NCBI GenBank assembly: GCA_012845835.1
Contig: JABAKD010000026.1
Coordinates: forward strand, 15,290,533-15,354,532
Direction of reading: 5' to 3'
Origin: Undaria pinnatifida
Taxonomy: Eukaryota > Sar > Phaeophyceae > Laminariales > Alariaceae
DNA length: 64,000 nt
Shown: piece by piece, positions 952 through 46,239 of the stretch
Position numbering within the stretch: position 1 is the stretch's first letter
Layout of the letters: each line of letters begins with the position of its first letter
Notes under the pieces: generated by a model
What the model saw: the letters and a program-made list of their open reading frames with translations, nothing else
Told to the model about the DNA's origin: nothing
Database searches by the model: none
Made by a program: the position numbers and the translations under genes

Positions 952-1220
952 GACCCAGGCTACGGTAGGGGGGTCCCCTTTTGGGCCTTTTATTTCAGTG
1001 GCTAGGGGTCACTCGCGCGAGTAACCCCTTTGTTCTTATGCAATCTTACGTTTTCTTCATGTTTTACATTGACGAACTCAATCCGCAATGCAAAGGTGAT
1101 CTAAGCTGCGGCAAACCAAGTTCCTAAACCATCTTCATCCGTAGGGTACAGAGCTACTCGTGCGAATGGCTCAAACACACCAGTGAAAATGGGGGTATCT
1201 CCCCTACCGTAGCCTTGGTC
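952..1220 (+). mobile_element. MITE-A copy 1
   Basis: A 269-bp element with termini GACCCAGGCTACGGTAGG and the inverted CTACCGTAGCCTTGGTC. The flanks CACC/CAAC are an imperfect 4-bp target duplication. It has the two internal dyads ACTCGCGCGAGT and CTCGTGCGA described in the findings. No coding capacity. Confidence 0.85.
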
Positions 1221-1296
1221 CAACCACAACCCCTCGGTGTCATTACCACCTCGAAATATTCAGTTACCAATATGCCGTACAGATCATACTTGTGAT

Positions 1297-2288: not shown

Positions 2289-2352
2289 ATGACCCGGTTG
2301 TCCAGGACGCTTACGACCGTGCTGGCAATTGTCACCACTCCCGCGGTGAACG
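2289..2352 (+). CDS. Gene 1 exon 1: signal peptide
   Basis: The exon encodes 21 residues starting [17 protein letters not shown], a basic n-region followed by a short hydrophobic core, as in a secretory signal peptide. It ends in a strong GTGAGT donor in phase 1. The next exon starts in phase 1, so the join is open. This ATG is the first in its frame after a stop. The exon is short and has no homology support of its own. Its value comes from the phase match and from its place just upstream of the LRR array. Confidence 0.6.
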
Positions 2353-5300: not shown

Positions 5301-8300
5301 CTTTGTTACCTCGTCTGAAATGATTCTAGAGCCCGATGATGCATGCGTCAAACTCTGCGTCATCGATATTTCCGCTGAGGCACAACATCCGTTGAAACCT
5401 CTAATTTACGAAGGAACACAGACGTTAAACAAGGCTCATCCGAACGAGGAATCATTTCACCCAACGCTCCTGAATCAATTTGCCGGACGTGACTCACCTA
5501 CCGTACTGGGACTAGCTAAGTTAACAACATGTAGCACCTCACCCCCTAGGCCACGCCATAAACAGCTGCGACATGGAAATGATCATTGTCTCCTCCGCTC
5601 CTTCCTTAGCTGTTCTGCTGTTTTGCTTTGTGTATATATAGGTATTTCCAAGAGTGTTCAATCACGGACGCTGACCTCGACGATCTAAGGACGTGTTTTG
5701 ATTCCATCGGACGGAGCAGCATCAAAGGCCTGTGAGTGTTCATTGTTGACCGGGAGTAGAGAACATGCAATTGCGAACAAATGAATCGGGCTAGATCGAA
5801 ACATTTTATTTTTAGTTCGAGCAGAACCGATGCGTAGCGTTGTTCCGTTCCGCCATATAGATCACCAGAATTGTCGGGCCAGGTTCCGGTTTATGACAAA
5901 TGCCTCTCGGCTCGATAGTACCGTCCCATATTGTTGGAAACTATGTAGACCCTGGAGTACCGTGAAGCGTTATGTTCACAGGACGTGGACACGACCACTC
6001 ATGTTCGCTTCCTAGTACATGTGCCCGTCAAAATCTACGCCGGTTTTCTTTTTCTAACCCATCTAGGCGTATGATGTTGGAATGGGCAGCGGTGAAGACC
6101 GGCAAATGGAATAGAGAAAAAGGGGAAATGGGGGAGAGAAGAGCAAAGCGCGAAGGCGTGAGACATCGTACTTTCAACCCATCCACGATTGTATAACAAA
6201 CCTTTACACTACACCACGAGAGATGACCGCATTTTTTCGAAACAACCAAATACAATGGAGACGTGGGGAGCTATATCTGATACACTGGGTTGGGCCGTGC
6301 AATGGGTGTGGTCTAACAATACCCCTTATCTCTGTCTCGCGGTTGGTTTTCGCCGTGATTCGTTCGATGGCGCAGATACCTTAACGGCAACGCGATTACT
6401 GCCATACCTTCCGACTTGTTCGAGGACATGTCGACTTTGACAACTCTGTGAGTATTGTTGTGTTATCAAGACCTTAACCCGCTACCATGCAGTGCGACGG
6501 TTTAGCTCGTCCGGCTGCTATTAAATAGGGTACGTATCCTTCATAATTTTGCAATATTATGAACGTGCTGCCCAAGAAAAATGTTGTGGACCATAGCTAC
6601 GGTAGGAGGTGGATGACCACCTTTTAGCCACATTTTTTTCAGTGTCTCGGTGTCACTCGCGCGAGTAAGCCCCTGTTCTATTCGCACAGTAACAGGTTTT
6701 GTTGTCGTTTAATATTCTCGATGTTAATGCGAAAAGTGATGCTTACCTGCGCTGCAACAACAAATAATCGCGGAACGTGTTTTTGTCAATAAGATGCAGA
6801 GTTACTCGCGGGAGTGAAAAGCAGGGGAAGCTCCCTACAGCAGCCTTGATCTAGGTATGGCTGAACCCAGATTGCGGAACGATTACGATCACCTGCTTCC
6901 GAATATGTCGTGTGTGTTCGACCACGTCGCTGTGTCGGATCAGGTCACTGCAAGAGAATGACATCGACTTCATTGATGTGGCTTCTTTCCAACCTCTGGC
7001 GTCGACTCTGTACTACTTGTGAGTGGGGGGGCGTAGAAGACAGCACAGCAATAAGCAGAGGGTAACGAGTCATATATGTGTACTTTTGAGCGCTAAAATT
7101 CCCGTTTCCGGAGACGCGTATTACGAAACCACACCTACGTCGTAGGCAACCTGCAAATAGGACACACTTCCTTCGTGAGTGTGCAATGTATTACCTGACA
7201 GTATATATCAAGCTGTCGTACATTCCGACCGCTTCAGTCGGTTGGGAGAGAAATGTTACACCTATACATTTACGCCCAGGACGTGCCTCCCCAACGATTT
7301 CTCGAGATAAGGACCTGTTCCTCAACCGTTCACCTTAAAACAAGGTCTTCCCGTTGTCCGCACTTCTCGCAACACGCCAGCATCACTGAAAATGATCGAT
7401 TTTTGAGAACATGTTGCCCTAGGTGTGGAACCACATGAGCGTGTGAACCAAATTGTCGGAGCCATCGTTTCCATTTTAATTAGCTGACGTGCACGTATGT
7501 CTGCATGTTTGTTAAGCCTTGCTCCGTTATAGACCACCACTCTTGCACGTGCCTCCCTCGACCTATTATACCGTACTTGCGATCAACACCACAAGAAAAT
7601 GTGAACGTACAGCTGTCCCGACACGACGTGTTGCTAATCTTACCGTTCACCCGCCTGACTGTACGGGAAACGCGGGCGCCCCTCATAGTTGACACGATGA
7701 TTCTGTTGGTTCGCCGTGTGTATCATATTGCATTCGCGTTTTCCCTCTCGCAAAAAGCCAGGGTGCTGCACGAAATGTCTCCCAGGTCCTTGAAACAGGC
7801 ACCTTCGATGGTGAACATTTTGTGGCAATCCAAAGAAAGCTCTTTAGACAGAGGTCGAATAAGTTCCTCGGGTTGCAACATACAGCTTCCACAGGGAGCA
7901 GTTCGAAGATAAGCCATCTATGGGAAAACAAATATGTTTCTTCAGCGGTTGCTCGAGTTGAGCAGGCAATGGTTTCAATCTTGGAGCACACCTTTCGCAA
8001 ATTTTAGGAACATCGGCTTCAGGTTCTCGCCATCATTGCTTACGATTCTCTTCATGTATTGCATCTGAGATGGCCCTCGTGCCCCCCGGTACCAAACCAA
8101 AGCCAAATATATATATTTCATGCAGTGTTAGTCCGAAAGTGTATGATTTGCCGCAATAATGTTGGCGATCATCTCACGACGCCAGATTATACACCCCATT
8201 CCTTCAGTACTCTACGGTACATGTGTAGACTAAATCGTTGTGGCGTAGAAGTGTTGAGCTAGCTCGTAGGAATATACCACTTTATACGCTTGAAATACAC

Positions 8301-11300
8301 ACATGCGGATGACTTGCCGCTGAGCGCTGGGCCCTTCCTCTATAGTTTCAAGTGTCGTCCACATCTACCTCAGTATCCCTGGAACCCTTGATAGCTTACT
8401 ACACGCGTTATCGTCAGCATGGAACAAGCGAATTGAAGGCCAACCAACGAGATAGCTCATTCCGACCACCTAGAGCTTCAATTGACCGCGAACAGTCCTA
8501 CGTGCGGTTGTCCCCTGCCGTTCAAGGTCACTCCTGCTTTGCTCATACAGCTCATACATTCACGCGGTACCCAAACGTATACGACAGGCTTTGTTGCAGG
8601 CAGACACCACGCGTATGACAGGTACTGCTGCACACGTACGACGTCGAAAATCAGCTCAAAATTTTCCCCGTCAGTCAAGCGATCGAAACGAGCACCACAC
8701 AAATTTGAGGCAAATCCTAACATTCCGTCGCACCCGATGTTTTTTTTTCCCTTCCTTGTCCGTTTACGGTCGCAATAAATTAGGCGGCTAGACAGCAATC
8801 AGCTTACGACTATTGCCTCAGGGACGTTCCGTGGTTTGTCGAACGTGGATACCATGTAAGCGCTCAAAGAGTGATTTCCTCGAGGAGTTGGTACAAGCAT
8901 TCGTCGACTGCACAGAGGTTTGCAAGAGCAACGTTGTTCAAACGTAGGGTGTGTATTTTCTGACGGCAGGAACAGAGGGTCAACGACTGTGGCGCCGCGG
9001 CTGGTCGATGCCGTAACCAGCGACCACGTAATTTCATATAAGGCCATTAGCTACACACCCCGCGACACCGAAAGATCACACGATGCACACTGATGTAGCA
9101 GTTTACGCGATGTGAAGAGACTAGTGGATCCATTTAAAGTTTGAGATATATCTGTTTTTCTGAACTCCGCGCGAGTGACCGTTGCTACGAAGAAACATAA
9201 TATGAGTCATCCGCACAGGCAATGAGTGAGCCGGGTGTCAACGACGTTGGCTGTGCCCATATCCTTCACTTCCCCCCCGTGTGTTGCGGCTGCAACATGT
9301 TGCGTCCACTTAAAGCACCGCGGCGGTGGGTCTCCACGATATCTAATCCTGTAGTTGCATTGAGCAAGAGAAAACGTTTGAGTCGCTCCTAGGGATCGAA
9401 CGTTTTTTGCAAACCGCTTTCGACGACGTGAATATCTTCATTTTGTAGCTATCGGCTAATACGAATATATATATATACCTGATTTTTTTTGGTCAGGACT
9501 ATATCATATAAATGTAGGTGAGTGTACATCTCGATCAAATGTCTGCGAAATCATATGTAAGGTGACGAGGGATGAAGATGGTGATGGTGATGGTATTGAG
9601 CTAGCTCCTCATGTCGGGCTCTCACAAAACTCTTGGAATATGTATCATCCCTAGCACTGGATATCTCGTTCATGAACAACTGTCCTCTGCCATTGCTCAC
9701 CCCATTTCACACCGCCGGCTTTCACTTGATATACGATGCATCGTCCAGTGCAGTCCGTGCGTAGACGGTGGCAAGACCAAGGCTTTTTTGCGGGGAAACA
9801 ATGCGATTTCGGACATGCAATAGTGCCTACCCGGCATATTGTCGATGATATGGTGTTCGTAAAAACCCAGTTTTCCGGGTGTGGACTGTCGTCGTGAAGA
9901 CCATGGGATGGCTCGGAACGCTGCCCCGCTGAAATATCTGTCGACTAGCTGCGTTAGCGAGGCACACAAAGGCATTTGTGCAACAAGTGGCCTACCGCAT
10001 GCTTGGTCGCAAACTTCCACACCTATCCCCCCTGAAACACCGGCCGATGCCATATATTTCCATCCGGTGACTATTCGCGTCTGTCTTGTTCTGATTTGAT
10101 GCTTGCCATCGCGCAGGTTTCTTTTCTTCAACAAGCTTACAGCACTACCTTCCGACCTGTTTGAGGGAATGTCTGCTATCACTCGTCTGTGAGTGGTGTG
10201 CGGCTGTCTTCGTGTTACGAAGTTGTCCTCAGATGTAGCGCGGCGGTATTGCTCACGGGGAAAATCCCGAGTGGAAGCGTGGGAGCGCATGTATCGCGCA
10301 CTGTCTTGAGAAAATATGAACGTTTCAAACAGGGATCAACACTATCATTGGAATCTTAATGCCGAACGACTCTTCACAACAAGCCGCCCAATTTTCGTCT
10401 GTCCCTCGCTTGACCAATTTTGGCTTTTGGAGCAGGTCGCTGATTGGCAATGAAATATCGACCATTGACGAGGCAGCCTTCCAGCCCATGGCACTGACGC
10501 TGACTCGCTTGTGAGTGGATGGGCAACACAGTCAACAGTAGCAAAAACCGTAGGTAGCAAAATATACTCGGAGTGCTGTCAAAACTTCACGACGAATTCG
10601 GTTTTGATGCCTCGAGGGCAGGAAGTGTTGCATCGTCACCACGGTAGTGAAATATGACCTTTGATAAGGTGTTGTTAAATAACTTTGTGGTGCACCTATT
10701 GCACTGCCCGGTATATATATTTATATATATACATCGTTCTGGCGTACCCCATATATATGTTCGTTTTTGGAGACGGAGAAGGCTCAACCAATGCACTTTA
10801 TGCGTCTAGAGATGTACACACTTCCTATTTAGTGAAGCCGGATTCGGCTTGAACATGCACTGCATCTGTTGAACGAATAAAATGTGTCCAAGCCGCTCGT
10901 TGCACGACGCAATCGCTACATGCCTGTAAGATTGGCGATCATTTTTTGATTGGACTGGGACAAACTCAGCTCGAAGCAAACAATCCCAAATATTGTTTGA
11001 ATCGTTTCGATACGACTCCCACATCTACATAACTTTCTGCGTGGAGAAGCGCCCGCTGTTGACCACCGCCCCTGCTCCAGCCCTTTAATTCAATGCTAAG
11101 AATAGGTGGTCTCTATTTATGAGCCTTGTTTAGGAATGACCTGGAGTCTCTCGAGCGAGTGTTACCCCCCCTATTTATTTCTTTGCAGTGTTCAAGTTTG
11201 GTGCTACTTCAACGTCGCGTCATGAACCCGCGCTACTTCATGAGTATCTTTTTTATTCCCCTCGCTTCCTCTTCCTTAAACTCCCCACCTACTATCGAAA

Positions 11301-14300: not shown

Positions 14301-17300
14301 TAGTATATAGTGCTGATTTGTGTCCATCTCGGAGATCAAGTGCATCAGGCCACAAACGTCAACATGGACGGTTTGTCCTCGCTGTTTCGAAATCGGTTGT
14401 CATCTTCACCACCATCATCAAACAAGTTGGGAATGTGATACTCCCGGAATCTTGCATATCTTGCACGTCGAGATTGTATGACGGATTATGCGTAGAATAA
14501 TGCTCTACTTCTATCGTATACGAAGCATTTGTTCGTTCACAACTCATGGTTAAATGGCGTATACGGTAGAGGTGTGTTATAGTCTATGCTTTTCCTGGCC
14601 CTTCTAACCCATTGAGAGGATATTCACAAGTACTCATTTCTTGACCAAAATAAGGGCCTTGGGAAAAAGTTAAAAAAAAAAGTGAACTCCGATGGAAAAT
14701 CCCGCGGCATCCATACCCCATAATGAGACTGCCAAACAAAAATTAAAGTGTGACGATGTAGGGTTGAGGTGAGTTGAAGCGTTTTTCAGTCCACTCAGAA
14801 ACGGATTTAGCAAGTAAGTATGATTTAGCATGTATGATTTAGCAAGTATGATTTAGCATGTATGATTTAGCAAGTATGGTTTAGCAAGTATGGCCTACGT
14901 CCACGGTAGCTGGCATCTCACGCCGCACATCGATGTTACACGGTATATCCGATCAACTTCAAACGAGATTTTAGTTATCGAAACCTGCTATTTTGAGAGC
15001 TTTATCGATTGGGTGTATATATTTCCTTTTTAAGGGTTGGCTGATATGCTTCATACCCACGAGCCCCGTGTGTACTTGAGGCCAGTAATTCCCCGGCACA
15101 TCGTGCTCATTGTCGCCCCGTCGTGTGTGCTGTCGTTGTCGCTCAGGTATCTTAGCGACAATCTGCTCACGACCATTCCCTCGGGCCTCTTCGCCGGCAT
15201 GGAGTATTTGCATACTTTGTGAGCATCCCACGGAAACGTATTAGGCAGTTGTCGCGAGCATTCCCCTATTGTACAGCGCGGTGACCGCATCCAGTAATCG
15301 GTTAACCATCCGATCAAGTGTCCGCTTCCGAGTGGCTCAATCAATTGGTTGCGTATGCAGTTGCTGAACGGGTGATCGTTTTGGCCTGGTAATGTTGTGT
15401 TGGGAAACGCCTGTTTCTGTCACAAACAGGTCGTAGCTGAGACGACACCGACGCACCGGTAACATCCTGCGACCAAAAAGTTGTAGATGTGTTACTTTTT
15501 CAAGGTGCGGGGAGTGTGACATGACCGCTGACGGTCATCAGTGACTCCCCACAATTTTGACATTTTTTTGGGGTATCCGCAGTGACAAATTCGCCTGTTA
15601 TTCACGGTGTCGAGCACGAGATTCGTTGCAGGAGTCAATACTGGCAGCTAAGAAACCATGTACGCGAAGGAGACGTTTCGACGGGCGAGCGCTCATTATT
15701 TCACCTTCGCCTTAGACATTGCTCCTTCACGCCGCTTGTGAATTCTTACTTGTTCGGGTAAGCCAGCGAGTTTACCAATGTTGTTTGGTTGTGAAGAAGT
15801 TTAATCAAGTGTGTAACCAACCACATTTTTTCCTAGCTGGAAAAATGGGCCACGGCAAGTTCTAAGTGAACATGCCTTTTGATGTTGATGCCCGTGCCTG
15901 CTTCAGTCCGTACATGCTCGGGACTCCGAAACGTACGCCGTAGTTGCAGTCGACAACAAACGAGATGTGAACGTGGCCTCTACGCCGTAAGTTGCAGTCG
16001 ACCACAAACGAGATGTGAAAGTGGCCGCTGGCAAATACTGGACTTGGGGTCCGGTTAAGACAATGGCCACCTACCCCGGAGATCACGGCAAGCTTTGCCT
16101 AGTTTTGGTTCACCTAGTAGAGTCTCCTAGTATACCCTGCTTGTCGCTGCTCGTTTCCCTTTTGCCCTCGGCAACATCCAGGTCCCTACACAACAACGAC
16201 CTGACGACGCTTGCGCCAGACATCTTCGACGATTTGGTCAACATGGAAAAGCTGTGAGAATCCCATCAATCGTGCAGTTGCTCCAAGCGGTCTTGGATTG
16301 CAATGTCGGCTTTTTACAGCCGGCTGTTTGCTACCAAAAAGTCTAATATGGCCTAATGAGTCCCTTCTCCGCAGTGGTACAGGCTTGACGAGCCACCACC
16401 ATGTGCTGAGTTCACATGCGGGAATGATTGCAATCACGTCTATTTGAGTGGGAGCCGCATTACGAGGTATCCCAGCAGAAACTTTAATGCCGGCCGGTTC
16501 ATCTCGGTAATCCTACAACCATACACTGATTAAAAATATTGTTACATCCAAATTACACGCTGCTTGTTGGGGCGACAACGGAAATATTTTGTTAAACCGG
16601 GCCAACCGGCCGAAAATGTTCGCGGTGACTTAATACCTGGCCTGACCTGGCACCTGGTACGTGCATTGAATAATGCTTTTCGGGACAAATATAATATTGC
16701 CGATGTCATGTGACGCACGCACCTTCTCCACCCATGCTTGCAAACGGGTGAACAATGTACGGCAAACCTATCAGCATAATGCTCAGACCCCAACACGTTA
16801 ACGCGCCAGAACTGCCAGCGGGTGTACAAGTTACAATAAGAACTGTACAGACGGTGGGCGGCAGATTTGTGCCTGTACGGAACTTCTTGCGCTCACAGGT
16901 TTCATTGTGGCGTGCACGTGCTTACCTGGTTGCGAGGGAGCCCGGAAACAGCGTAGACGTGTACACGCAAGACACTTGCCGACCAGCGATGGCCGTTGTG
17001 CGAGCGATTACCACGGTGTAATTTTCCTCCTCCCCGCTCGTAGCATTGCGGTATGTCTGGGAGAATATAAAAACGTTGCAGTTAGAACGATTTAAGCATA
17101 AGGCAACACAACGAATGTTCTCGTTCCAAAACAATGTGATGTTGAACTGAAATGGAGCGCATCATGTGCTATATGAAAACGTTTGCCGCTCTTGATTGCA
17201 GCCCCTGCTTCAGCCCAAGTATATACGGGGTGCCCAAAACCTGCACTCAATCCGATCGACACTGGTTACGAACGAAACACGGTAGACACTAATTATGACA

Positions 17301-20300
17301 TACACACGACACAGTGTGCCAGCTTTGAGCTGACGAGCTCGCCTGCGCAACCACCGACAGCACCAACGAAATACGCGACGAACATACCCTCGTTACCCCG
17401 TGTTAGTCGTCGCGCATATTGTTTTTCCGGTTTTGGTTCGTCAAGTACCTGTTTGGCAACGAACTCACGAACTGTTCCCTCGGGCGTCGCGAACTTGTTT
17501 TGCCCGTTGTGGTCCATCAGGTACCTGTACGGCAACGAACTCACCACCCTTCCTTCAGGCGTCTTCGATGGTACGGGGTCCCTTTCCTACTTGTGAGCAT
17601 TCAGGTCGTTGTGGGTATTTCTATTCTCAGGAAGTTTGCAATGGCTTGTTAACGGCAGTGACCGATTTTCACATCGAGCAGTCAGCGAAGAGCATTGACA
17701 ACCATGGTTCAACGGTGGCCAGGCTTTTTGTCATTGGTTGGGGTGATCTTGTGGTTGTATCTGCTGGGAGGCAGTTTTAGGAAGATTGTCCTTGTTCCGG
17801 TTTCTTACTCTACGTCACCACTTTTTATATATTGTGCATAATTGAATAGATTTATTCGCATTGATGCTCCGAAACCAACCAGTACACGACGAAACAGTTG
17901 TACCGCGACGGAGCCATCATTCAAAGGTGTACCTAACAGTCTGTGGCATCCCCGCTCGCAATAATTATGCCCATTGTTAACACGCACCCGGTGAACAAGG
18001 TGTTAAAGTGAACTCGCGTCAACCAAGTACTGAAAGTCATTGACAAGCTACATGCAAGGCAATTGCCGCAATGCCTGCCATTTTTTAGGGTGGAGCAAAA
18101 TTTGAACACATCCTGATGCTAGTATCTCAAACTCTTTGCAATTCAGCGATGGTAGTTAAAACATTTCAAAGGTAGACCGATCAATCACATTTTTCATCGC
18201 ATGATGAGCGGGAACCGATACAGCATGTATTGTATGGAAGCTCGCCCTGTTTGCGAGGCCCGCCACCGTATATTCGTGCACATGGACACGGTCAATACAA
18301 AACATTATTTGTCTTATCATCACGAGATTTTGACGTGATAGATACGAACAATAACTTACAGAGCGATACCCGCGAACATCAAACGTTCCCGAAAAATATA
18401 TTTCTTCCGGGAACAACGTTTTTTCGGTCTTCTTGCCTCCGCGTTAACCGTCGGTATCATGCAGGGACATACGAACCAACGACCTCGCCAGCCTTCCTTC
18501 GGACGTATTCGCCGGTGTGGCCGCGCTGGAAACCTTGTGAGCATGCAAAAATGTTGATCTGGCGGGTCTCGATACACGCTTCCTAATATCAGTTGGCGTG
18601 TTCCACCCCAAATTATCGCAGACGCTACACACGTGTGTGGCTACCTGGAGTGGTTGGCTGATTCTACCGTTGTGTCCACCCAAAACAACCGATTGTCCTT
18701 AATGCCATAACGAACGTCTCATGGCTGCTCCACTCGACGGAGGATGCTATGGAAAGCATCTCTTCAAACATATTCTTGTTCGCCAAAGGCAAACGAACGA
18801 TGGCGTCGGGGTGCCAAGGGGTATAGAACTTCAGGAGCTACAAGCGGGAGCTGGGTTTGAAACCGGAGATTCTGTTAAGAGGAAAATTGGAGAGGCTACG
18901 GGAGAACAACTCGGTAGCCGAGTCTGGACAGAAAATGTATCGTTCCTTCTAGTCTATACCATTTGGCAAAATGGTGTTCCGGTGGGCTACTGCCTGGTGA
19001 CCATATACTGTCATACTATTTATGGTAAGGTTTACCTAGGGTAGCTGGAAGCTCATTGGTGCAAGGACGTTAAGCTGTGACCCGCGAGGCCCCCATAGGT
19101 GTCTCGTTTCGATCGAATCAAGTGTGGAAAAGCTGATTATTTCTCCGTGAGCTGGCGATTGTCGCTTCACGCCGAATCGTGTATTCGATCTCCATAGTAT
19201 TTGAACTTCAGACGAAACGCGTTGTTGGGGGGAACACGTGTTTCGCACATGTACCACAAACCCAAGCAATGAAAGATTAGAAATGTAATGTATTGTTTCG
19301 ACAGTATTCTGCACTCTCTTTTTGCGAACCCCGACTTTGGCACCTCCAAGCTCCTGCGAGTCGGTAAGTGTGCACAAGACCATCGTTGATATTGTTTCCA
19401 ACTGTGTAGCCTTGAGGGAATAAGAAGAGTGATTTGTTTCCGGAGCCATCCCACGGTATGGGTGCAGCATATTCCAAGAAATACTTGAGCTCAGGACTGA
19501 CATGAAGAGCTAGGTCAATATCAACATCTGATCAACATCATCGCCGGTAACATGACTTTAAAAGGCATTCCTTCGCACAACCCGTCCAAGCTTATGCCCC
19601 ATAATCCCATAATCATAAAACAAATTATGCTCGTAAGATCATTAGTGAAGTATACTATAACCGATAGTTTCTAACTTGAAGAGCTCATCGCGGGCAAGGT
19701 ATACCTTATTTTGGCTCTAAACGTGTCACCCCTACCGAGGAATGACTCTCCGACGACTTAGAACTCTACTACAGACCACGCGAAACCTTATGTGGAGGCT
19801 CACCCGGCGATGGACACCCGGGTTGGTTTCATATCAATCCTTAAACGACCCGTCAGCATCGTCATTGCCACCGATGCCCAATAAACTAAGTAACGGCAGC
19901 TACGGCCGTCCACAGCGACAGCGTCGTAAATTTTGCTGATGACCCACCGGACCCAGCGATCACCAATATCTTCTCGGACATGTGGAGTAGGAGTACTTTT
20001 AAGGGTCCGCGGTGTCCGTCGTCGTGCTCTCGCGCTTGCCGTTGTGAACTACCAGGTTGCTATTCGGCAACCAATTGACGAGCCTTCCCCCAAGCATCTT
20101 CGCTGGTTTGGGCTCCCTTTCTTACCTGTGAGTACCTGAACAAACCAGTGTAGGTGGTTATTACAGACGTTACTTGGTTTCAGCGAACGGTGTTAACACC
20201 GAAGAAAACCTTAAAGAACAGGAAAAATTGTGTATATACGGCTGGCTTGGGTTGAACGGGCGAGAATTCCACCCGTATCTTGTGTATTGAGGAGGTTGCG

Positions 20301-23300
20301 GACGTGTCGGCATTGAGTGCCTAACAAAACTCGTTGTATCGGTAATGTTTTATTAATGTACATGACACAGGTGCACCAGGGCGTTACTCCAACAAGGAAG
20401 AAAAAACACATTCCGTTTAACGGAGTCCGTGGTCGCAAGATTAGCGCAGATCAACGCTACGGTAATGGGGTACCCCCAATGTTCGCTTCCGGGTCAAAGC
20501 CAAAAAAGGGAATAGTACTAGAGGTATACCCTTTTTTGGCATTTTTATATATTTTTTGGCTTTGACCCAGGAGTGACAAATGAGGGTACCCCCCTGTCGT
20601 AGCCTTGATAGGTATACCCGTTTTAGGCTTTGACCGGGGAGTGAAAATTGGGGGTACTCTCCTACCGTAGCCTTGATCAGAAATCACAGGTACCTGGCGC
20701 TGATCGCAGGACGTCATATTTCGCAACTGGTTTCCCCAACATAATTTCCTACTTTATGCAGTTGCGGGGCACAAGGATTCGGTTATACTGATGTAGAACA
20801 CAACCGATCTGGTCAATATGCATACATAAGATACCGGCCGACAATCCATTACTCCTATTCTCTACATTTCGAATATTTCCCGTGTCCAATGAGCTCGCAT
20901 TTGGCGTCAAGAGCTCCCGCAAAAGACCTGGCAGCCAGCGACCTTTGCTATCATGTCCATGCTGATGTAAACCACTTTCGGTTTCGGCTCGTGTGGTAGT
21001 TTGGGTATGCAATTTTAGTTCTTGTAATATCCTTCTTACTCTCCAGCTCGACCGGGTTATGCTATTGTTTTTCCTGAAGTACTTCTGGACAAGCCGCTGT
21101 TTTTTTTCCTGAAGAACTTCTGGACAAGCCGCTGACACAAGTGTTTTTTTCTTTCTCATCTCCAGTTTTCGCCTTCGTTTTGATCGCGCGAATCGTGAGG
21201 AACTTCCACCCTTCGGCCTAACTTGTCGTCTATATGCATCGACTTTCACCACGTCAAGCCATTGTTATTTCCGTCTGTCGATTTGAAATACATAAGCCAT
21301 ATGGTAAGACTCGAACCTACGACCTCGACCCCTCTAGGTAGGCAACAATATTGTTAGACCACCGGCGACGGCGAATATTTTATGCGGGCTCGTAACCAAC
21401 GCGATATTTCCGGTCGCGTCCAAACGTGAATTGCTAGCCACTGCCGGCTCATGGACGGCTTCTTGCTTCTCCTTACCCGGCTGACCCGTGTGATCAAGCG
21501 ATGACAGCAAGCATCGCTAGGATTTATAGTGACGTTGACAACCCTCCGTGTACGCATTGTGTCTCGTCACGCCTTCGCCTGTGCCTTCGCGATCAATCAG
21601 GAACCTCAACGCCAACCAGTTGACGACCCTTCCTTCAGGCGTCTTTGCTGATTTGGAGGCGCTGGAGTTCCTGTGAGCATCCTCCCACCAAGACGTACCG
21701 GGGGTTGTTGCAAGCGTTCGAAATATATTATGCTGTTTCCTCTATGAGCTCTTTGTCCAGAAGGATGACGAGCATGACCAAGCAGGTTGGTCGGTGTTTT
21801 GAGGTCCGTGATGACATATTTCTTCCACTGGGTTCGCGAACCATGTCGCGATGGTTGTCGCCAACTGTCATGGTCGACATTAAATTGGACTGCTGGTTTC
21901 AACGGGACACCAATAGCGCTTCAAGTGTGTAGTCCTCGTTTTAAAATGATTATTAAAGGGCATCACGGCTCAAGACATTCGGTCGACGTCTAACTTGCTA
22001 CTGAGATTCCACAGTGTAAAAAAAAAATGACGTTTCATTGGGGTGCACGAGAGGTCAGCTTGCGTCGACGAAGAACAAACAGCTACCCTAAACATGGGCT
22101 GCGCCAGGCTTGGTTCATGGGCTTAATATGTCCGGACCCCATCCAGCCGGCAATAGTCGCTCCAACGTAAAATTCCGCAAGTAAATGCACAGAGGATTTC
22201 TCCGTACGTCGCTGCATTACGTTGTGGGTTACTAGCCATTTGTTGTGGCTTAGAGCAGCAACAACAGGCGTACAAAATCACGCGCTCTGTTTGCCATGGC
22301 TCTAATTACGATTATGATCTTATCGGTTTTTGTTGGTACCCCTTTTCTCGTTAACTTTCGAAACCGCTGCAACATAAAACGCGTAGCAAGCTTGTTGGTG
22401 GTGGTCGGACACAACATCACAGCTTGAGGTAAACTCGACGAACAACTTGATTTCAGCAATCTCGATCTGAGTTACACCGCGAGATGTCCATCGCGGAAGA
22501 CTTCCGAATATGTGATGGGTGCGTCTGTTTCGCAGTTGATGTTTGCGGGCAGCGTTCGGACATTGAGACAGTTGAGATCGACGTGAAATGAACAGTAGTA
22601 TCAATGGCTAGAACATGACAACGTGTTTCAGCGTACAGCTGCCCCTCTGTACAGAGCGACTTCCGCGAACACCAACCAGCTGTAACAATTCAATACTCTC
22701 CTGCATACGGCATGTTTTGCCCCAACGTTCGCTTTTTCCGTCGTTGTTATTCAGGTACCTAAGTGTCAACGATATCACCAACATTCCTTCAGACGCCTTC
22801 TCTGGTTTAGAGGCGCTGGAATACTTGTGAGCATGACTATCCGTTGTGCAGGCGTTTTTCATGGGTATATTATGGTTTGGACTGCCCTAAATAAAAAACC
22901 ACGTTGTGAGGCATTCCCACAAAAGGATCGACCGTGCTGTGTGTCATGCTTAACTTGTAGCGTTTTCTCGTGCACCCCATCTCGGGAGAACTGCCGGCAA
23001 GTCGGACTCTGTCATCTTACTGTTGCTGTCACTTGTTGCGATTGAAATTGCAGTGGTTCGCCGATGAACGTGAACCTACCACCTACCACATGATCCACGT
23101 GGTTGCTCTTCATATGTGTATCGTGTGCGGAGTCGCCACTCGTGGTAATGGTTCGACGACAAAGCCCGCACCCGGTGTCAACAGTGGACTAATGCTACGG
23201 TAGCGGATGGATTACCCCCTTTTGACCACACGTTTTCAGTGGCTCTGTATCACTCGAACGAAGAACCATCCTGCCTCTTGCGGTGACAGTCTCTCTTTCG

Positions 23301-26300
23301 TTCGTGCTGTTTCACATTCTCGATATAAATTCGAGAAAGGGATGGTAGCTACACGCCGCACCAAATCAATCGCTCAACGTGTTTTTGTCGGTGAGGTACA
23401 GAGTCACTCGCGCACGAGTGGCTCAGACTCGGAAGTGAAATTTGTAGGTACCCCCCGTGCCGCTTCCATGATCAGCGCAGTACGAAAATTTATCAGTCGT
23501 GGCGCACACGCACTCGACTTGTGCCAAGTAACGATGAAGAACGTAAAGACAAAACGTAGACAGCGTATTTCTTCAACCTCTTCCGTGGGTGTTTGGTGTG
23601 CAGTATCACCTCAGATCGCAATACATCTTCGACGGAAAATACGCTGCTGGTTTCGTCGCACTGCTATTTTTCGCTGTGGCATATACGTTGTTATTTTGTA
23701 GCGATGTTAGACGGCATGAAATGCAGGCGTAAGCACGCAAAGTGACTAGGCAACCAATGGCGCCCACGTCTTTAAATGCATGCCGCATCTGCCTCGATTT
23801 TTGTATCTCATACCTCCTGCATGTCTGTTAAATTTGTCAAGCACGTTGTTGCCGCTCAGCCCTAATTGCACTTGGAGGCATACCTACTAATCATACGTCC
23901 CCCACAACCTTTAATAGCGCTGACCTAAACCCCGACGTTCTTGTTTGGAGTTTCGACCTCCTGTACATGAACGTACCTGTCTCAAGCACTACACGCACGC
24001 CGCTCCAAGCGCTGCAATTGTTTCGGTCGACATGAACTAACGCGTAGAAGACAGGCCTGCCTTATGCACGGCATCGTGCCTCGGGTTATAGTTGGACTCT
24101 TTGACCTAGAGACCATCGCTAAAACGACTCTGGTATTGACGCGTGAAAACATCTCATGGGATGCACAATGCTTATCGTCGCGATTACGCGTTTGCTGTCG
24201 TGGATATTGCAGGAACCTCGACGGGAACCAGCTGTCGTCCCTACCCTCAGGTCTATTTTCTGGTATGAAATCACTACACAGTCTGTGAGTATCCCAGAGA
24301 GCCATATAGTAGAATGTTGATGCATACATTATGTGACTTCTTTACGCAGTTCTCACAGCGACACACCGAAGAAACGTGTCGTTAAGCATGGCAGAGGCCG
24401 CGCGTCGATTTGTCTGTGGTTCGGGCGGATTTTGTGATGCAGTATGTGTTAATAGTTTCAGCTCCAGAAATGTTTCCGCGGTGCCCATTTCGGAGACCCC
24501 GTGGTACGGGTGTCACCACGCGTTTCAACTGTATATAGACCGGTGAGTTGGTTCCAAATTACAAGGAGAGAGATATCAGACGTTGTTTGCTCATCATTTC
24601 AAGGTGTATCTGAACAACGCGTTAGCTCGCAAACCCTGTTGACGCCAGATTTATCACGCGTTGTCCACGACGACTCCCAATAATTGAATCATATTTGGCG
24701 TACATAACTTTTCGTGAGCTCCTAGCGATCAGAGGGGGCGCTACATTTTCCCCGCATGATAGATTCAATCGGTAGATGTGTGGCTTTTGGCTTGTCGTTT
24801 GAGCGTCGGCCGGTGATACTCGCTCAGCTGGGGTTATACTCACTCGACGGTTTAATGTGACCCGGCTTCGACAATTCATTTGATTCGCAAGTTGATACTT
24901 CTGAAAGCGACGCACAAGACTTTAGCTTGTATATATAGCAAGAAGGCGAGCAACGTTAGTGATGTGCCTGCAAAAAACGTTCTTGATGGCTACGTTTTTG
25001 ACGGATTGCGGTGTCTTCTTTGTCCACTTCGCTTCTCAGCATTCAAGTACATGTACAAGTAATCGAGTTGGATGTCATCTTCAGGTTGGTGTTGTTGGTC
25101 TGATATATTCCAGTCTTGAGACAATGGTTTCCAACTGGGTAATGTAATATATGCATCAACAGATCCTATGTGGAGGCTCACACCGTTATTGTTGCCAGCA
25201 TATTTTTCGATTGTGCGTGCACCAGGCTCTTCAATCCTTGCGACGGGCCTGATTTCCTCCAAAACGAAATGTTGTAACTACTGCTGGCACGTGCACTACC
25301 TCGTGGTTTAGGCTTAGAACTGACTAGCTTAACCGAACAACCACAGCGAGCACCATCATAATTTAATAGCAGTTCTAAGACCCCTGACGTATCCGCGATG
25401 TATATTAATTGTGACTCATTCGCGCCTGTTTGCCGTCGGGATTTCCTAGGATTCTCTTCAGCAACGTGATCACGGCCCTTCCCGCGGACGCCTTCGCTGG
25501 TTTGCAGGGGCTGGAAACCTTGTGAGCATCCTAAGAAGTAATTGTGGGGCGTTGTTTCAATCGCTATGTTGATGAACCGAGAGGTGTTTCCTCCAAGCAA
25601 ACACTCCACCAACCCGTCACGTTTTTCCTGGCCGGGGTTTGGTTTCTGCAAGGGCATGTGATCAGACCTATCCCACGGTCGGGGTGCATGAGATTCTAAC
25701 AAGTCCCTGAGATCCTGACGGAAGCAGCTCAATGACTCACCCGATACTAAATGATTTCGGAGTCATTCGTTGCCACAACCCGACCGCCTTGGGCCTAAAA
25801 CAATATTCACCCACTCGTGAAATAACTTGATCAATTACCAACGCATAGTTCCTCCATTGAGGAGCTCAATCAGACAGGTACGACATTATTAGTTTATCCA
25901 ACATCTGCGACCCCTACCGCACTGTACCACGCTAAAAAGGGTTGATTGCTCACGTTTAACGGCCGAAATGTACCCCGTTATTTCCCGCGTGTGGGAACTC
26001 TGACGCAACGTAGGGTTATGAGCGGCCACCGCTTCTTTCCAGTCGTATATCAAGAGCATGGATCGTTGGCTGTCCTCTAATTCAAGAGGGGGAAATGGTT
26101 GCACTGACCATGTGCTAAATGTGCTCAGCACTCTTTTGTAGGAAATAGACAGGGTTTGCGATATATATAGCTGTACCGTTCTCGCTGTACGACACTGCGC
26201 TGGACAGACGAAACAGCCGTGGCTCGCGAGAGTATACCGGTTAACGTTGCAACATTTTGGTTGCTGATAATGATTGTCTCGAACCTCTGGGTCGATGTTT

Positions 26301-29300
26301 TTTGCGTCCAATCGTAGGGTGGTCTATACTTCTAGACTCTCCTTGATTTATGCGGCAGTAGACCCGGCGACCCCGCGCTGTTGAATGGAAGGGGGATAAT
26401 AAAAAACTATAAAATGAACGGGTTATCACTCAGTAAATGCCGTAGACTATACTGCTTTGGAGATAGTCCAACCTGTCGAAATTAGGGGATGCTATCCACG
26501 GTGGTATACTACTGCAGTACAGTGTACACGGTGCACCGTAGTTGGTCCGTGTCTTTATTCGATGTACGCATGGATATAGTATATGATCATATTCGAGTAC
26601 GGCACAACGCATAACACTGGTACTTCTTCATTTCCCACGTGCTGTCTACGCCGGCGTAAATATATAGCGTACCAGAGGTAGGATAGAGTGCGGCAGCACC
26701 CTTTTCAGAATTCAAGCAATGCGCACAACAGCAACAACGAAAACGGCGCGGATACTGTTGCGCATGCGCAGCAACGACCCCGCATGTACGTGATTCAGGA
26801 ACACTAGGCACAATAATTGTAGAGTAGCAGCTGAGAGAAACCGCAGTGTCGTTGATGCTCAGTATTCCTTAGCTCAACAATATGGAGACCCCGCAGTATC
26901 CACTCCAGCCCGGTTCATGAGAATCATCAAATCATCAGAAAATTTATAGAGGGGCGAAAACTAAGCTCTGCTTAACGACGTACGGGCAGCAAAGAACATA
27001 CGTGAGGAACAAAAAGAGAGGCGCGAGAGAGATTTGTGATGTCAGGACTTTTGGAGCTTTCTGTCAACAGGTCATTCAATCCGCGGATACGTTTCCTCCA
27101 GGGTATATAAGCTTGGACCACTTTTTTTTTTCTTTTTTGATCCTCCTGGGGATCCGGTTAAAAAAAGCTTGAGCTCCATACACTTTCGTTTGTGTACCAG
27201 TTTTCGTCCATCTGCAGAACGCCGACTTTGTGTCAACCTCGCCCCTCCGGTTTAGTCAACACTATGAACTTTGGACCACTTCGTTTTCGCCGCAGGGTCA
27301 CATCGAAAGCACCCGTCTCGTCCGCGATATCTACCCCCGACATCGTATTTCGGGGCGATTTCTTTTATGTTTCCTTTCAATCTGATATGTTAGTCCTAGC
27401 ATGTATCATTTGGCATTCGCCCATCAAATAACTCACTTCTACAACATTTCGTAAGCTTGGACCACTTCGTTTTCGCCGGAGGGTCACAACGAAAGCACCC
27501 GTCTCGTCCGCGATATCTACCCCCGACATCGAATTTCGGGGCGATTTCTTTTATGTTTCCTTTTAATCTGATATGTTAGTCCTAGCATGTATCATTTGAG
27601 GTGTATCTTACATTCGCCAATAAAAAAACTCACTTCTACAACATTTCCTAGGCTTGGACCACTTCGTTTTCGCCGGAGGGTCACAACGAAAGCACCCGTC
27701 TCGTCCGCGATATCTACCCCCGACATCGTAATTCGGGGCGATTTCCCTTACGTTTCTTTTTAATCTGGTATATTAGTCCTAGCATGTATCATTTGGGTAT
27801 ATTATACATTCGCCAATCAAATAACTCACTTCTACAACATTTCGTTTCACGTCATAAGAGTACAGAAGACGGATCAAAATGTGTGCCATTGAGGCTATAA
27901 TACAAATGCACCGCAAAAAAAAACAATAAAAGAGATTCAACCGCCAATTGGTTTAGAGCGTGTAACCACTGGAACGGGTTGTTTCACCCGAATATTTCTG
28001 CCTTGAAAGAACGACCCTACTCTTATATCTCTTCTCGACCACAGCAGCAACAGCAGAAGCAGTGCTAGACGCGTTCAACAACAGAGGTGCGCCACCTTTT
28101 TTCTCAACACTACCCCTCAATTTGTAATTTTAAGACATCTTCTTCTCAACACAACAGCTGATTAGGAGGAACAATAAAGTGCTACTGTACAGGATAAAAA
28201 TCTCATGGCCTAAGTGCACAACGAGAATTCCAGCAAAGTTGGTTTACCTTAAAAACAGTTCCAAACGAGTTTAGGTAAAGGAGCCCCTTTGGTCGTTCAC
28301 CACTTCAGACAAACAAAATGCTCCCTTTACCGTAGCACGCATCAACAGCAGTTTCGCACCTTATCCATTCTGAACCGTACTCTTGACATCAACAGCAGAA
28401 TAAACCTGTTTTCTCAGTGCTCCGTGAATCTACGGTATTGACCCTTCTTTAGATTGGTGTCTAGGTTCGAACTCCTGAAGGTTGAGTCAAAACTGTTACC
28501 CGAACGTTCGTGTCGTGTGGGCAACTACGCGCGCACGTCGAAATGGTTTCAAGGCTTTAGGGGGGAAAGTGCTGATCGTATGAAGTTCTGGTGGACGCGA
28601 GGTAGTGCAGACATGCGCACGCAAGAGACTGGCGGAACAGGAACAGCTCCTGTCAATTTCCAAAACGATATCTTGTCGTTTCTCACTGCCTTGGTAGCAA
28701 CTGAGTTGTCTCTCTATAGCGCGGTAGGGGTTGCCGCTGTTGGATTGCCTAATAATTCACTGGTCCGATTGACCTTCTCAAGTGAGAAACTACCGGTTAG
28801 TCATTGATAAAGTAATTTCACGAGTATATTTGGTTTTGGGACTGAGGCATAAAAGCTTCGTCGAGTTGTGCAAACGAATGCCTTCGAAGGTATGTAGAAT
28901 CTCGGGTGATGATGAGATATTGAAATCTTCATCTGAGGAACCGCAAGAAATTTCTTTATCGCCCCCACTGAGGGATGGCATTTGTTTTACGCAACCGCCT
29001 CGTCAGAAACTGACGAAGGGCCATATGGGTCGCTGGTGTGTGAAACTTGTTAACAGAGAGTAAACCGCCGACGCGCTTTATACCAAAGACCTAGAGACCA
29101 TAGAGTCCGACACAGGTCCGATCACGATTCTCGAGCCGCTGTTGAACACGGGATCTGTTTCAGTTCATGCGTGCCCGTGGCTCATGAAACAACGCGGTAC
29201 TTCCAATCTCCACCAAACGAAATATGGTACGTACTTCTGACACAAACACCACCCTTTGCGTCTCTTGCAACTTACCAAATCACAGACCGAAACACGGGGG

Positions 29301-32300
29301 ATTCCAAGAATGACATTCAAGCTCGTTACTCTCCCGGAATACGGTCGTTTTCATCGCGCTTTTACTTTCGCCGTGTTGTATGACATACCAGGGATCTAAG
29401 GTTCAACGAACTGACAAGCATTTCCTCAGGTACCTTCGACGGATTGGAGCAGCTGGAATTCTTGTGAGTACCCCACTAAGTCACAATCGGCACCATTATA
29501 GTTTTCAGGCATTCCCCAACTTTTGTGGGCGACTTCGACAGCGTGGGGGATGAGTGGAACATGTGGTTGCATGTGGAGAAACTAGTTCTTCACTTTTTTA
29601 CCGTGACCAGAGCTGAGCGGGCCATGAGTGTTTTGTTAAGCTCGCATTCTGCGGTATTTTTCGCCTTCTCGGTTACTAAGCGGTCAACCAAAACACACAT
29701 GTCATGGGGTGTCGTGCCGGGGATGACCCTGGTGCGTCTGAGCTAACCCACAGAGAGAAATTTCGGTAGTGACTTCCCTCGTTTAAACAAAGCGTGCGTG
29801 TTTCGTCCGCAGCAAAACCGCTAGTTGACTCGATCGACGCCAAATGAGGCACCCGGTTTCCCCGATGTCCAGTACCACCCCGGGTAAACCGTAGACGGAG
29901 CTTTTGCATTCAATCAAAATACGGTGTGTTCTCGGTTGTCCGAGCGGGTACATATTCATCAACACACCACAAGAAATCGTGTAAACAGGTGGTGGTAGCC
30001 TCTCGTGTGGCTCTGGTTGACGTGACACATTCATCTCTCACTCGTCGGTTGATATCTCAATGCGAAGCCTGCAATCTCAAGAGGCATCAATGTAATGCAC
30101 CTTGAGAAATGCTATTACTATCACATGCCGACAAAACCATGGACATGGAGATTCCTGTTTTCAAACACAACGTGGCTCGTGCAGAGATATCCCCCAACCA
30201 GGTGTCCAAAACCAACCTGTCGGGTGTCCTCGACTGTTTGGGTTTCATCAGGTACTTGCAATACAACGATTTGGCAGCGTTGGACGTACATCTGTTCGAC
30301 AGTCTCGCATCTGTGCGCCTCGTGTGAGTACGCCCCCCAGGTCTGACAGTCTGGAGTATGCCTACACCGAATTAAGGGGAATTTTACCGAATATCTGTTT
30401 TTTTCCGCCCGCCGTTTGGTCGGCAGAGGGCGCTCTTTAGGTTAGCCTTCCGTTAGGCATGTTCAAAACCCCCGTATGGAGTGACGTCTCGGTTAGTGGT
30501 GAAACGTGCTTGGTGTATGTTCACGGTTGACCGAAGTGACGAGAGGATTCGACCACTAATAATAGCAGGAATTCTGTTTTGGGAGGGGTCTACGCTGTAG
30601 GATAACCAAAAAGATGATAACTGTTGGCGAAGGGATGATACAGCCGCCCACAGCAGCAGTGCGTAGCGTGCGCTGCGATTATCGCATGGCCCAATCGTTA
30701 TCATGACAAGCAAATATCATCGGCTAGACGAATGATCAAGACGCGAAATCTCACAGCATCTACCGTCGGCCATTACTCACTAATATTAGGCATACCAGCA
30801 CCGTGCAACACCACTACTTGACGAATTCGGAGTAGCATCGTATTATCAGCCAAACCCCGCATGCCGTGCAGTACATTAGCACACCGTTGTGGGAGTGACC
30901 AGGGCACGGACTAAAGCCACTGTAGCAGAATCAGTATTTCGTGAACGTTTTTTTCCCCCGCGTGGTGAAGAGGCGTTGTTCAGGGCTGATGAACCCGCTT
31001 TCACTTACGGCCATGATATATGGGCGTTTTGACGTGAGGTATACACCGTCAAGCAATGGTATACCACGCTGCGAGTACAAACCTCCAGCTGTTGGGGTCC
31101 CTTGTCTTTTTCTGTTTACAGCCATGCGACGAAGCGGCAGAAACGTCGTCAGTAATGTAGGGGGTTTCTTCCCGGCGGCGGCGTTGATCTTGGGGAGTTT
31201 CTGCGCAAACGTGGAAGCTCGTTGGAGGTTCAACTTGCTACAAACATGTTACGGTGCATTCCACTTGGCCAGTTTTATTGGAACAGAAGTGTCACCTGCC
31301 GAAGGGCGTGTAGTCTATGCTTCCGCCCCCGGTAACGGTGGGCCTTCGATTTGCTTAATCAGGAACCTTGACCACAACGAACTGACGACACTACCTGCCG
31401 GTGTGTTCGAGAACCTGGGGTCTGGAACATCCCTACAGTACTTGTGAGTGCCCGCGTGCCTTGCTCCAGCGTTATTACGACGTCATTACGAGGGTTTTGG
31501 GTGGACGAAATCAGAAATTTTCGCGCCCATTGAACGTTCACCTGCCGATCTATATACATCCATATGTATATATATGTATGATGCATTTCCTTCCACAGCT
31601 GTCAGATTGTGTCCCCCTCAGAAACGGATATTATTGTTTCCGCGCACAGACTGCCTAACATCACCCTGTTGACCCTGATAGATACACTGCAATTGCAAGG
31701 GAAGTCGCCGACCCATATCCTTAATGAGGACACATAACCCGTAATACGCGCGATCGGAGTATCACACACAGCTTGCAAAGATGAGTTTCGACAAAATCTT
31801 CGATCTCACAGCTGGAGTGTATTTTAATTTTTATAGTATATATCGTAATGGATGCTCCAGTATCCCGCGTTTTCATAAATGTTTTGTTTTCGAAAATGAA
31901 ACCTTACTTTCCGCACGCTCTGCCAGTTGTGGCTGTGCGTCGTTAGGGTCGACAACCCAGCTTCATGCTTTCGAACACCTGGCATGTTCATCACACCTCC
32001 TTTGATGTCCAACCCTAACGTCTAGCTCTTCATATCCATCCGTGCTATCTCTTGTCAACCGTGTTCTGCCTAGGGTCCTGACTTACAACGAAGACCTGCA
32101 ATGCGTCCCCACACAGTAAGTGGAGGGTGTGAAGCAGCCATGGTTGACGTGGTCGAGATGATTGGCTGCAACGTTGCTAATGTCTGCAGTGTTTTTAACC
32201 TGCTATTGACGCTGGTTACGATAATAGAGGTGCACCGCTTTGTTTTTGCGAGGTTCTACGATTTGGTAGCTTGAAGATAAACAACCCCATCGCTTACGTA

Positions 32301-41987: not shown

Positions 41988-42235
41988 GACCAAGGCTACG
42001 GTAGGGGGGGTATCCCCGTTTTCACTAGCGTGGTTGAGCCACTCGCACGAGTGGCTCTGTACCTCACGGATGAAAATGATTTAGGCAGTTGTTTTGGATC
42101 ATCTTAGGTTACCTTTGCATCGCGGATTGAAGAAAACGTAAGATAGCAAAATAACAAAGGGGTTACTCGCGCGAGTGACCCCTAGCCACTGAAATTCAAG
42201 GCCCAAAAAGGGACCCCCCTACCGTAGCCTTGGTC
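41988..42235 (-). mobile_element. MITE-A copy 4 (reverse)
   Basis: A 248-bp copy, slightly deleted, with a perfect GCCA duplication at 41984-41987 and 42236-42239. Confidence 0.92.
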
Positions 42236-44058: not shown

Positions 44059-44328
44059 GGACCCAGGCTACGGTAGGGGGGTCCCCTTTTGGGCCTTTTG
44101 TTTCAGTGGCTAGGGGTCACTCGCGCGAGTAACCCCTTAGTTACTATGCAATCTTACGTTTTCTTTATGTTTTACATTGACGACATCAATCCGCAATGCA
44201 AAGGTGATCTAAGCTGCGGCAAACCAAGTTCCTAAACCATCTTCATCCGTAGGGTACAGAGCTACTCGTGCGAGTGGCTCAAACACACCAGTGAAAATGG
44301 GGGTACCCCCCCTACCGTAGCCTTGGTC
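44059..44328 (+). mobile_element. MITE-A copy 5
   Basis: A 270-bp copy with a perfect CCTG duplication. Confidence 0.92.
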
Positions 44329-45761: not shown

Positions 45762-46239
45762 CTAAATTGCGACCGAGGCCAAAATACGCAAGGCGCAGGC
45801 CACTGCCATCATCCCCATTGCGATACCGCTACCGGTACCCACCGAGCCGTTCGCAAGAGCAGCCTCGTTGTTTTCGAGTTCTTCGTCTCCGCCCGCGCCT
45901 GACAAGTCACTGGGAGACGGCGTCATAGTGATACTGCTACGACTGTCATCGCTGGACGACGAGGGGGTGCTGCCCGCGCTGTCATCGTCGACACTAGCCT
46001 CGGGGGCACGGGAGCTGCCCGCGAAGTCGTCATCGTCTGGATCATTTGTCGGGGCAGCATCGCTCACAGACTGGTCGGTAGTAGGGGCGGGTGTGTCGGG
46101 GATTGTCGGGGCTGTTGAGTTGGTGTTGCTGGCGTCGTCGTCCCAAGAGGAAGTTGGCGGTGGGACCCCGATCGTCGCAGCGGCCGGCGCCGAGGTCCCA
46201 AGAAACACGGTTGCTGCCTCCGTCGTGCAAGATATATAT
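45762..46239 (-). CDS. Gene 2 exon 4: S/T/P/D-rich stalk and GPI-type tail
   Basis: The acceptor CTCAG follows a long pyrimidine tract and enters in phase 2 to match exon 3. One more cysteine (YISCTTEAA) is followed by about 100 residues rich in Ser, Thr, Pro and Asp, including DPDDDD and STPSSSSDDS. The end has small residues (NGSVGTGSG) and the hydrophobic run IAMGMMAVACALRILASVAI at the very C-terminus. That is a typical GPI attachment signal. The stalk is likely O-glycosylated (inference). Confidence 0.82.

What the first reader, a model, noticed from the sequence alone, without database searches (positions are those of the whole stretch)
5642..31443. Eighteen LRRs, each on its own frame-neutral exon
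Every LRR exon found is phase 2-2 and 72, 75, 81 or 90 nt long, so any one can be skipped, duplicated or shuffled without a frameshift. The joined frame is open across all of them. The array could yield many receptor variants by alternative splicing or by exon-level recombination, like a modular recognition repertoire. One-LRR-per-exon design with exon shuffling is, from memory, reported for LRR-GTPases of Ectocarpus. Here it appears in a signal-peptide protein without a GTPase.
Basis: partly seen in the sequence, partly recalled or inferred. Interest (0 to 1): 0.88.

Follow-up and report, generated by a model that had tools for sequence, protein, structure and literature searches.

The report
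Secreted kelp repeat protein, exon-built
This kelp gene encodes a probably secreted protein whose leucine-rich repeats each sit on a separate interchangeable exon and end in a mucin-like module; the close gene copies compared keep the same exons and vary instead on the binding face.

The parts
2289..2352 (+). exon 1: signal sequence [21 protein letters not shown](G), ends phase 1
   Evidence: similar MTRFFKALTAMLLVAPSITVVEG upstream of paralog B (matched by eye); no signal-peptide program run
2858..2909 (+). exon 2: [17 protein letters not shown](R), phase 1-2
   Evidence: GINACLESRCLAG in paralog B (weak E 1.6)
5642..5731 (+).
   Evidence: 58% identical N-caps in B and C; match in D at C33:10978980-10979043
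6376..6447 (+). LRR exon 1, 72 nt, phase 2-2
6944..7018 (+). LRR exon 2, 75 nt, phase 2-2
8784..8855 (+). LRR exon 3, 72 nt, phase 2-2
10117..10188 (+). LRR exon 4, 72 nt, phase 2-2 (with the next exon, a copy of 6376+6944)
10436..10510 (+). LRR exon 5, 75 nt, phase 2-2
15147..15218 (+). LRR exon 6, 72 nt, phase 2-2
16182..16253 (+). LRR exon 7, 72 nt, phase 2-2
17445..17488 (+). decayed partial copy of the 17521 exon (82%; 79% over 81 columns with flank), no donor seen
17521..17592 (+). LRR exon 8, 72 nt, phase 2-2
18465..18536 (+). LRR exon 9, 72 nt, phase 2-2
20056..20127 (+). LRR exon 10, 72 nt, phase 2-2
21601..21672 (+). LRR exon 11, 72 nt, phase 2-2; 83-84% identical stretch in paralogs B and C
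22755..22826 (+). LRR exon 12, 72 nt, phase 2-2
24213..24284 (+). LRR exon 13, 72 nt, phase 2-2
25450..25521 (+). LRR exon 14, 72 nt, phase 2-2
29392..29463 (+). LRR exon 15, 72 nt, phase 2-2
30252..30323 (+). LRR exon 16, 72 nt, phase 2-2
31363..31443 (+). LRR exon 17, 81 nt, phase 2-2
   Evidence: 81-nt last LRR exon also in B, C, D
32074..32115 (+). LRR C-cap exon ([13 protein letters not shown]), phase 2-2
   Evidence: LLSGNADLQCIPT in B and C
34164..34222 (+). Cys-rich exon ([18 protein letters not shown]), phase 2-1; a start 3 nt upstream would also fit
   Evidence: TCGDGFVCSPGAVGYTC in B and C
35747..35848 (+). Cys-rich exon ([16 protein letters not shown]...DPGAC), 102 nt, phase 1-1
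   Evidence: same type within 1.5 kb upstream of 13 of the other 29 own-genome module loci fetched; in C
37628..38482 (+). VWD-fold module, 855 nt, phase 1-1
39047..39105 (+). last exon (YRVRGPLDVFFSQDQHHDH stop), starts in phase 1
   Evidence: family tail YRV.G.L...F

Best explanation
The region is one 37-kb gene of a brown alga, very probably the kelp Undaria pinnatifida. It encodes a probably secreted protein: signal sequence, N-cap, 17 LRRs of one exon each, C-cap, Cys-rich segments and a C-terminal VWD-fold module. Shown by sequence and comparison: the exon anatomy and phases; the predicted VWD fold of the module; a paralog cluster on the same contig with the same layout but 5 LRR exons; in three such paralogs the exon set is fixed while concave LRR residues change fast and the rest is conserved; and the module sits on a class 1-1 exon and is joined to many unrelated partners. 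Inferred: the LRR horseshoe binds a varying extracellular ligand (microbial, wall-derived or self), the VWD/Cys-rich end anchors or multimerises the protein in the cell wall or mucilage, and specificity evolves by substitution on the concave face, with rarer exon duplication or loss changing array length. No splice repertoire is needed.
Against: No transcript or protein data. Secretion rests on reading exon 1 and on family members; no predictor was run. Concave omega is above 1 (1.94, 1.50) but not significantly (Fisher p 0.15, 0.31), so relaxed constraint is not excluded; B against C shows no significant concave excess (5 of 11 replacements, p 0.12). Only three paralogs of one cluster were compared, B-D and C-D are not independent, and the LRR exons of a fourth cluster copy were not found in the 9 kb fetched. 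I had looked at the B, C and D sequences before testing positions. Within the window's own array, variable positions include others than the concave ones (14, 16, 19, 20), and its youngest exon pairs (pS 0.29-0.33, few sites) are no more diverged at silent sites than D is from B or C. Foldseek gave no E below 0.001 and the model has mean pLDDT 75. Ligand, location and VWD function are inferred.
Confidence: 0.67

Rival explanations
1. One reading: the array is a modular recognition repertoire in which exon skipping or exon recombination makes many receptor variants within an individual or population.
For: Every LRR exon is frame-neutral. Teng et al. 2024 report splice variants with different LRR sets, as many as nine transcripts, in Ectocarpus ROCO genes (PMC11378527, sections 11 and 15). 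Array length differs between paralogs (17 against 5) and a relic exon exists.
Against: B, C and D hold the same LRR exon set. No pair of the 14 72-nt exons is recent (lowest pS 0.29), and their introns share no homology beyond about 30 nt except at the relic. The 18 donors read GTGAG or GTAAG with no weak optional exon visible (judged by eye).
Confidence: 0.15
2. The concave residues vary because the LRR face lost its constraint after duplication; the protein is an ordinary matrix or wall protein without a recognition role.
For: Concave omega is not significantly above 1. The VWD module is shared with enzymes and other secreted-type proteins, which fits a general matrix role.
Against: Relaxation should also reach other exposed residues, but these have pN 0.06-0.08; the rest of the LRR is under purifying selection.
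Confidence: 0.25
3. The gene is a degenerate or non-expressed locus, or two genes joined by my model.
For: No cDNA. The whole protein is not among the hits listed (capped lists). A near-invariant Gly of the module is Cys here, whereas a 98.9% identical ORF, probably of the same species, has Gly.
Against: 853 codons open over 25 exons with canonical borders; paralogs B and C preserve the exon types over 35 kb; LRRs, Cys-rich segments and module occur together in Ectocarpus P0041 and others.
Confidence: 0.07

Closest known systems
Brown algal LRR-ROCO genes (Teng 2024, PMC11378527; Zambounis 2012, not held, known from citations and memory)
   Same: One LRR per 72-nt phase-2 exon; fast-changing sites on the concave face; exon number varies
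   Different: ROCO proteins carry a C-terminal ROC(-COR) GTPase; here a signal sequence, Cys-rich segments and a VWD-fold module, no GTPase. Alternative splicing reported there, not testable here
Non-ROCO LRR-exon sequences of Saccharina japonica (15, Teng 2024 section 15)
   Same: Same exon type outside ROCO genes
   Different: Described as mostly LRR-only and a reservoir; no secreted LRR-VWD architecture or paralog exon comparison in the parts I read
Vertebrate gonadotropin receptors, one LRR per phase-2 exon
   Same: Same phase and one-repeat-per-exon layout (stated in Teng 2024, section 15)
   Different: 7TM receptors (recalled); independent lineage
VWD domains of VWF, MUC2, MUC5AC, MUC5B, FCGBP, RGMB
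   Same: Predicted fold and the GDPHxxxFxGxxFDFxG start
   Different: 10-16% identity, no Pfam match, one module per protein in the rows inspected
Metazoan class 1-1 extracellular modules (Patthy 2021, PMC8001218, passages read)
   Same: Extracellular-type beta-rich module on a symmetric phase 1-1 exon with many partners
   Different: In a kelp; that paper asks why exon shuffling is restricted to Metazoa and says the shuffled domain types are class 1-1

Membership tests
LRR-ROCO GTPase | LRR exons of 72 nt in phase 2, one LRR each | tested here: met
   14 of 17 LRR exons are 72 nt, 17 of 17 phase 2-2
LRR-ROCO GTPase | ROC (and COR) domain | tested here: not met
   Pfam scan at E up to 1 of the 846-aa draft protein lists no ROC or COR; the final model differs only at its C-terminal end
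VWD domain family | VWD fold | tested here: met
VWD domain family | match to a curated VWD sequence model | tested here: not met
   8 of 8 domain sequences scanned against Pfam at E up to 10, no VWD model listed
VWD domain family | GDPH...F.G..FDF.G start | tested here: met
   in the module and aligned with FCGBP, whole-chain E 0.0017, no single stretch significant; that it marks VWD domains is recalled
VWD domain family | calcium binding or disulfide-linked multimers | not testable with these tools
   needs protein
Class 1-1 shuffled module | flanked by phase 1 introns on both sides | tested here: met
   of the 30 loci fetched, copies at 60% identity or more: 5' border 21 of 21 and 3' border 23 of 23 where present; complete copies at 50% or less: 0 of 5 (the 3' border of L028 read by eye)
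Class 1-1 shuffled module | joined to unrelated partners, repeatedly | tested here: met
   partner Pfam accessions (names recalled); 10 changes among 28 rows, AU p 2.7e-53 against one LRR clade; partners of the other copies in this genome not determined
Gonadotropin-receptor type LRR gene | 7TM domain | tested here: not met
   no such Pfam match listed
Somatic or splice-generated receptor repertoire | more than one exon combination per individual | not testable with these tools
   no cDNA or multi-individual DNA over the LRR exons

The most novel reading that the evidence does not exclude
Brown algae independently invented animal-style exon-module shuffling for extracellular proteins: a VWD-fold module became flanked by phase 1 introns, was spread over LRR, protease, CAP and other secreted proteins, and in the LRR branch carries a fast-diversifying recognition face, giving kelps a secreted LRR-VWD recognition family.
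Probability: 0.5. Interest if true: 0.82.

Novelty: new variant of a known kind. Interest (0 to 1): 0.58.

Why it matters
How seaweeds recognise microbes is open. This gives a concrete secreted candidate family whose binding face appears to evolve fast while its exon set stays fixed between recent paralogs, so the published idea that LRR exon shuffling makes repertoires can be tested against a simpler one. The class 1-1 VWD module is a test case for whether exon shuffling of extracellular modules, described as restricted to animals, arose again in another complex multicellular lineage.

Tried and rejected
Rejected: the module as a plant root-cap (PF06830) domain, a recalled lead; that model was not listed, and the 4 papers found looked unrelated by title. 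Rejected: loss of the 75-nt exon in paralog C, first missed because its donor reads GTATG. Dropped from the LRR label in the final count: P0019, whose LRRs lie behind the module and look like a merged neighbour gene (dropped after the first tree, whose count with it is, also 10 changes among rows of known partner).

Led nowhere: the LRR-region protein search listed mostly unnamed metagenome, bacterial and animal LRR proteins. NCBIfam gave only hits far below cut-off. In the window's own array silent sites are too diverged, and exposed sites of both faces too variable, for a selection test. My guess for the LRR exons of a fourth cluster copy (module L016) missed them, so it is not counted. Family searches of the own genome for the metalloprotease and CAP partners did not complete. 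Zambounis 2012 and Teng 2023 are not held. One paper search was malformed and was reworded. Of the 70 unannotated ORFs used for the module's 3' border, at least 13 are 96-100% identical to own-genome copies, so they are not all independent evidence; all 70 come from the best 120 of 255 hits.
Full report
OBSERVATION. Eighteen exons between 5642 and 31443 on the + strand have AG/GT borders; all are phase 2-2 and the joined frame is open. Lengths are 14 x 72, 2 x 75, 81 and 90 nt. A rule-based scan written with these exons in hand found exactly these 18 in the window and 1 hit on the reverse complement. A 79-base pattern for the 72-nt type hits 14 times and never in 100 shuffles. The 90-nt exon is an N-cap, so there are 17 repeats. 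Each LRR exon runs from one split codon at a leucine position (once Met, once Val) to the next, so skipping one would remove exactly one repeat.

THE WHOLE GENE. The model runs 2289-39105, 25 exons, 853 aa, no internal stop: signal sequence, a short Cys exon, N-cap, 17 LRRs, C-cap, two Cys-rich exons, a 285-aa module on one 855-nt phase 1-1 exon, and a short last exon. In Pfam only LRR families pass their cut-off. Counterparts of the signal sequence (by eye), second exon (weak), N-cap, C-cap and first Cys exon lie in order in paralog B, and the second Cys exon is present in paralog C.

SPECIES. Two module copies of this genome (L018, L019) are 100% identical over 279 aa to EukProt proteins labelled Undpi1 (P0197, P0017); the assembly has 511 Mb. 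I infer Undaria pinnatifida; reading 'Undpi1' so is from memory.

DOES THE EXON ARRAY SHUFFLE? Among the 14 72-nt exons of the window, pairs have median pS 0.66 and lowest 0.29 (91 pairs, about 17 silent sites each). DNA similarity of about 70-83% between exons stops within about 30 nt of the borders, except for a partial exon relic beside exon 17521. A 72+75 pair occurs twice (6376+6944, 10117+10436), at about 70% identity. So no duplication looks recent. Three paralogs on the same contig (modules L015, L013, L014 = B, C, D) each have 72+75+72+72+81; the N-cap of D lies just outside the fetched stretch. B and C are 88-94% identical in blocks covering about 31 of 35 kb; C and D mostly 81-82%, range 76-90%. 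Thus LRR exon sets are stable on this scale, while A and B-D differ by 12 LRR exons. The LRR exons of the fourth cluster copy (L016) were not found in the 9 kb fetched. Ectocarpus relatives P0041 and P0053 show 12 and 10 regular repeats, the latter from a partial model with apparently retained intron sequence. Not every LRR gene here is built so: 18 of 30 LRR_8 matches cover at least 56 of 61 positions in one frame.

WHERE IT VARIES. Between B or C and D, the x positions of LxxLxLxxN have pN 0.51 and 0.44 against pS 0.33; other codons have pN 0.09 against pS 0.28-0.29; other exposed positions pN 0.06-0.08. Omega is 1.94 and 1.50 at concave sites, not significantly above 1 (p 0.15, 0.31), and 0.27-0.28 elsewhere. 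B against C is too close to tell (5 of 11 replacements concave, p 0.12). My first class of positions was set after looking at the sequences; the second follows the LRR consensus but also came after that look.

MECHANISM. Shown: anatomy, fold prediction, fixed exon sets in three paralogs, concave variation. Inferred: secretion to the wall, ligand binding by the concave face, anchoring or multimerisation by the VWD/Cys-rich end. A splice repertoire is neither needed nor excluded.

COMPARISON WITH PRINT. Teng 2024 (PMC11378527; abstract, sections 3, 11, 15, part 1 of section 9 and search passages read) already gives 72-bp phase-2 LRR exons, positively selected concave sites, splice variants, 15 non-ROCO LRR-exon sequences in Saccharina and the gonadotropin-receptor parallel. 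Zambounis 2012 was not held; I know it from citations and memory. Patthy 2021 (PMC8001218, passages read) treats exon shuffling as restricted to Metazoa and the shuffled domains as class 1-1. A search for 'VWD domain' with 'brown algae' found no paper. Related searches (4 of 4 listed; 12 of 38; 12 of 38; 10 of 14) listed none on such a module, judged by titles and abstract starts only. PMC12879055 (PR-1 genes of brown algae) was searched for six terms; the passages shown do not mention this module.

VERDICT. The finding is real. Its exon design is known, its repertoire reading is weak, and the secreted LRR-VWD family with a class 1-1 module is the part worth following.

Noticed in passing
window 37628-38482; G000 contigs C22, C23, C26, C28, C30: The VWD-fold module is a large family in this genome (138 matching pieces); a distant group at about 32-41% identity lies in dense clusters, and the few inspected lack the flanking introns.
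   Followed up: partly
window 37654-37656: A near-invariant Gly of the module is Cys in the window; a probably same-species ORF (P0177, 328 of 331 residues equal) has Gly: polymorphism or assembly error.
   Followed up: partly
window 954-1221, 4610-4877, 37030-37297, 41988-42233, 44062-44329, 48020-48285: A 268-bp element with similar inverted ends; copies 81-97% identical on both strands.
   Followed up: partly
window 11701-11990, 31579-31835, 50614-50875, 62464-62679 and others: A second dispersed repeat of up to about 290 bp, copies and pieces 74-91% identical; copies at 11701 and 31579 lie in introns of the LRR gene.
   Followed up: no
window 45762-46295 (-) and 58418-58984 (-): Minus-strand frames that look like a Ser/Thr-rich, hydrophobic-ended C-terminus and a signal-peptide first exon; possibly one secreted gene (by eye).
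   Followed up: no
window 12109-12318, 13033-13600, 27271-27845; also 319-586: Tandem arrays (GTAT, TCCCCCCT, 197-bp unit) within introns of the gene, and a CTT array upstream of it.
   Followed up: no
G000 C35:1635894-1639373, C26:16366876-16367055 and others: Other LRR genes in the same genome carry more than one repeat in one open frame, so one LRR per exon is not the rule here.
   Followed up: no
P0145 (841 aa, EukProt, species not named): Same type of N-cap, 12 regular LRRs and C-cap, but other Cys-rich segments in front and no VWD module behind in this sequence.
   Followed up: no
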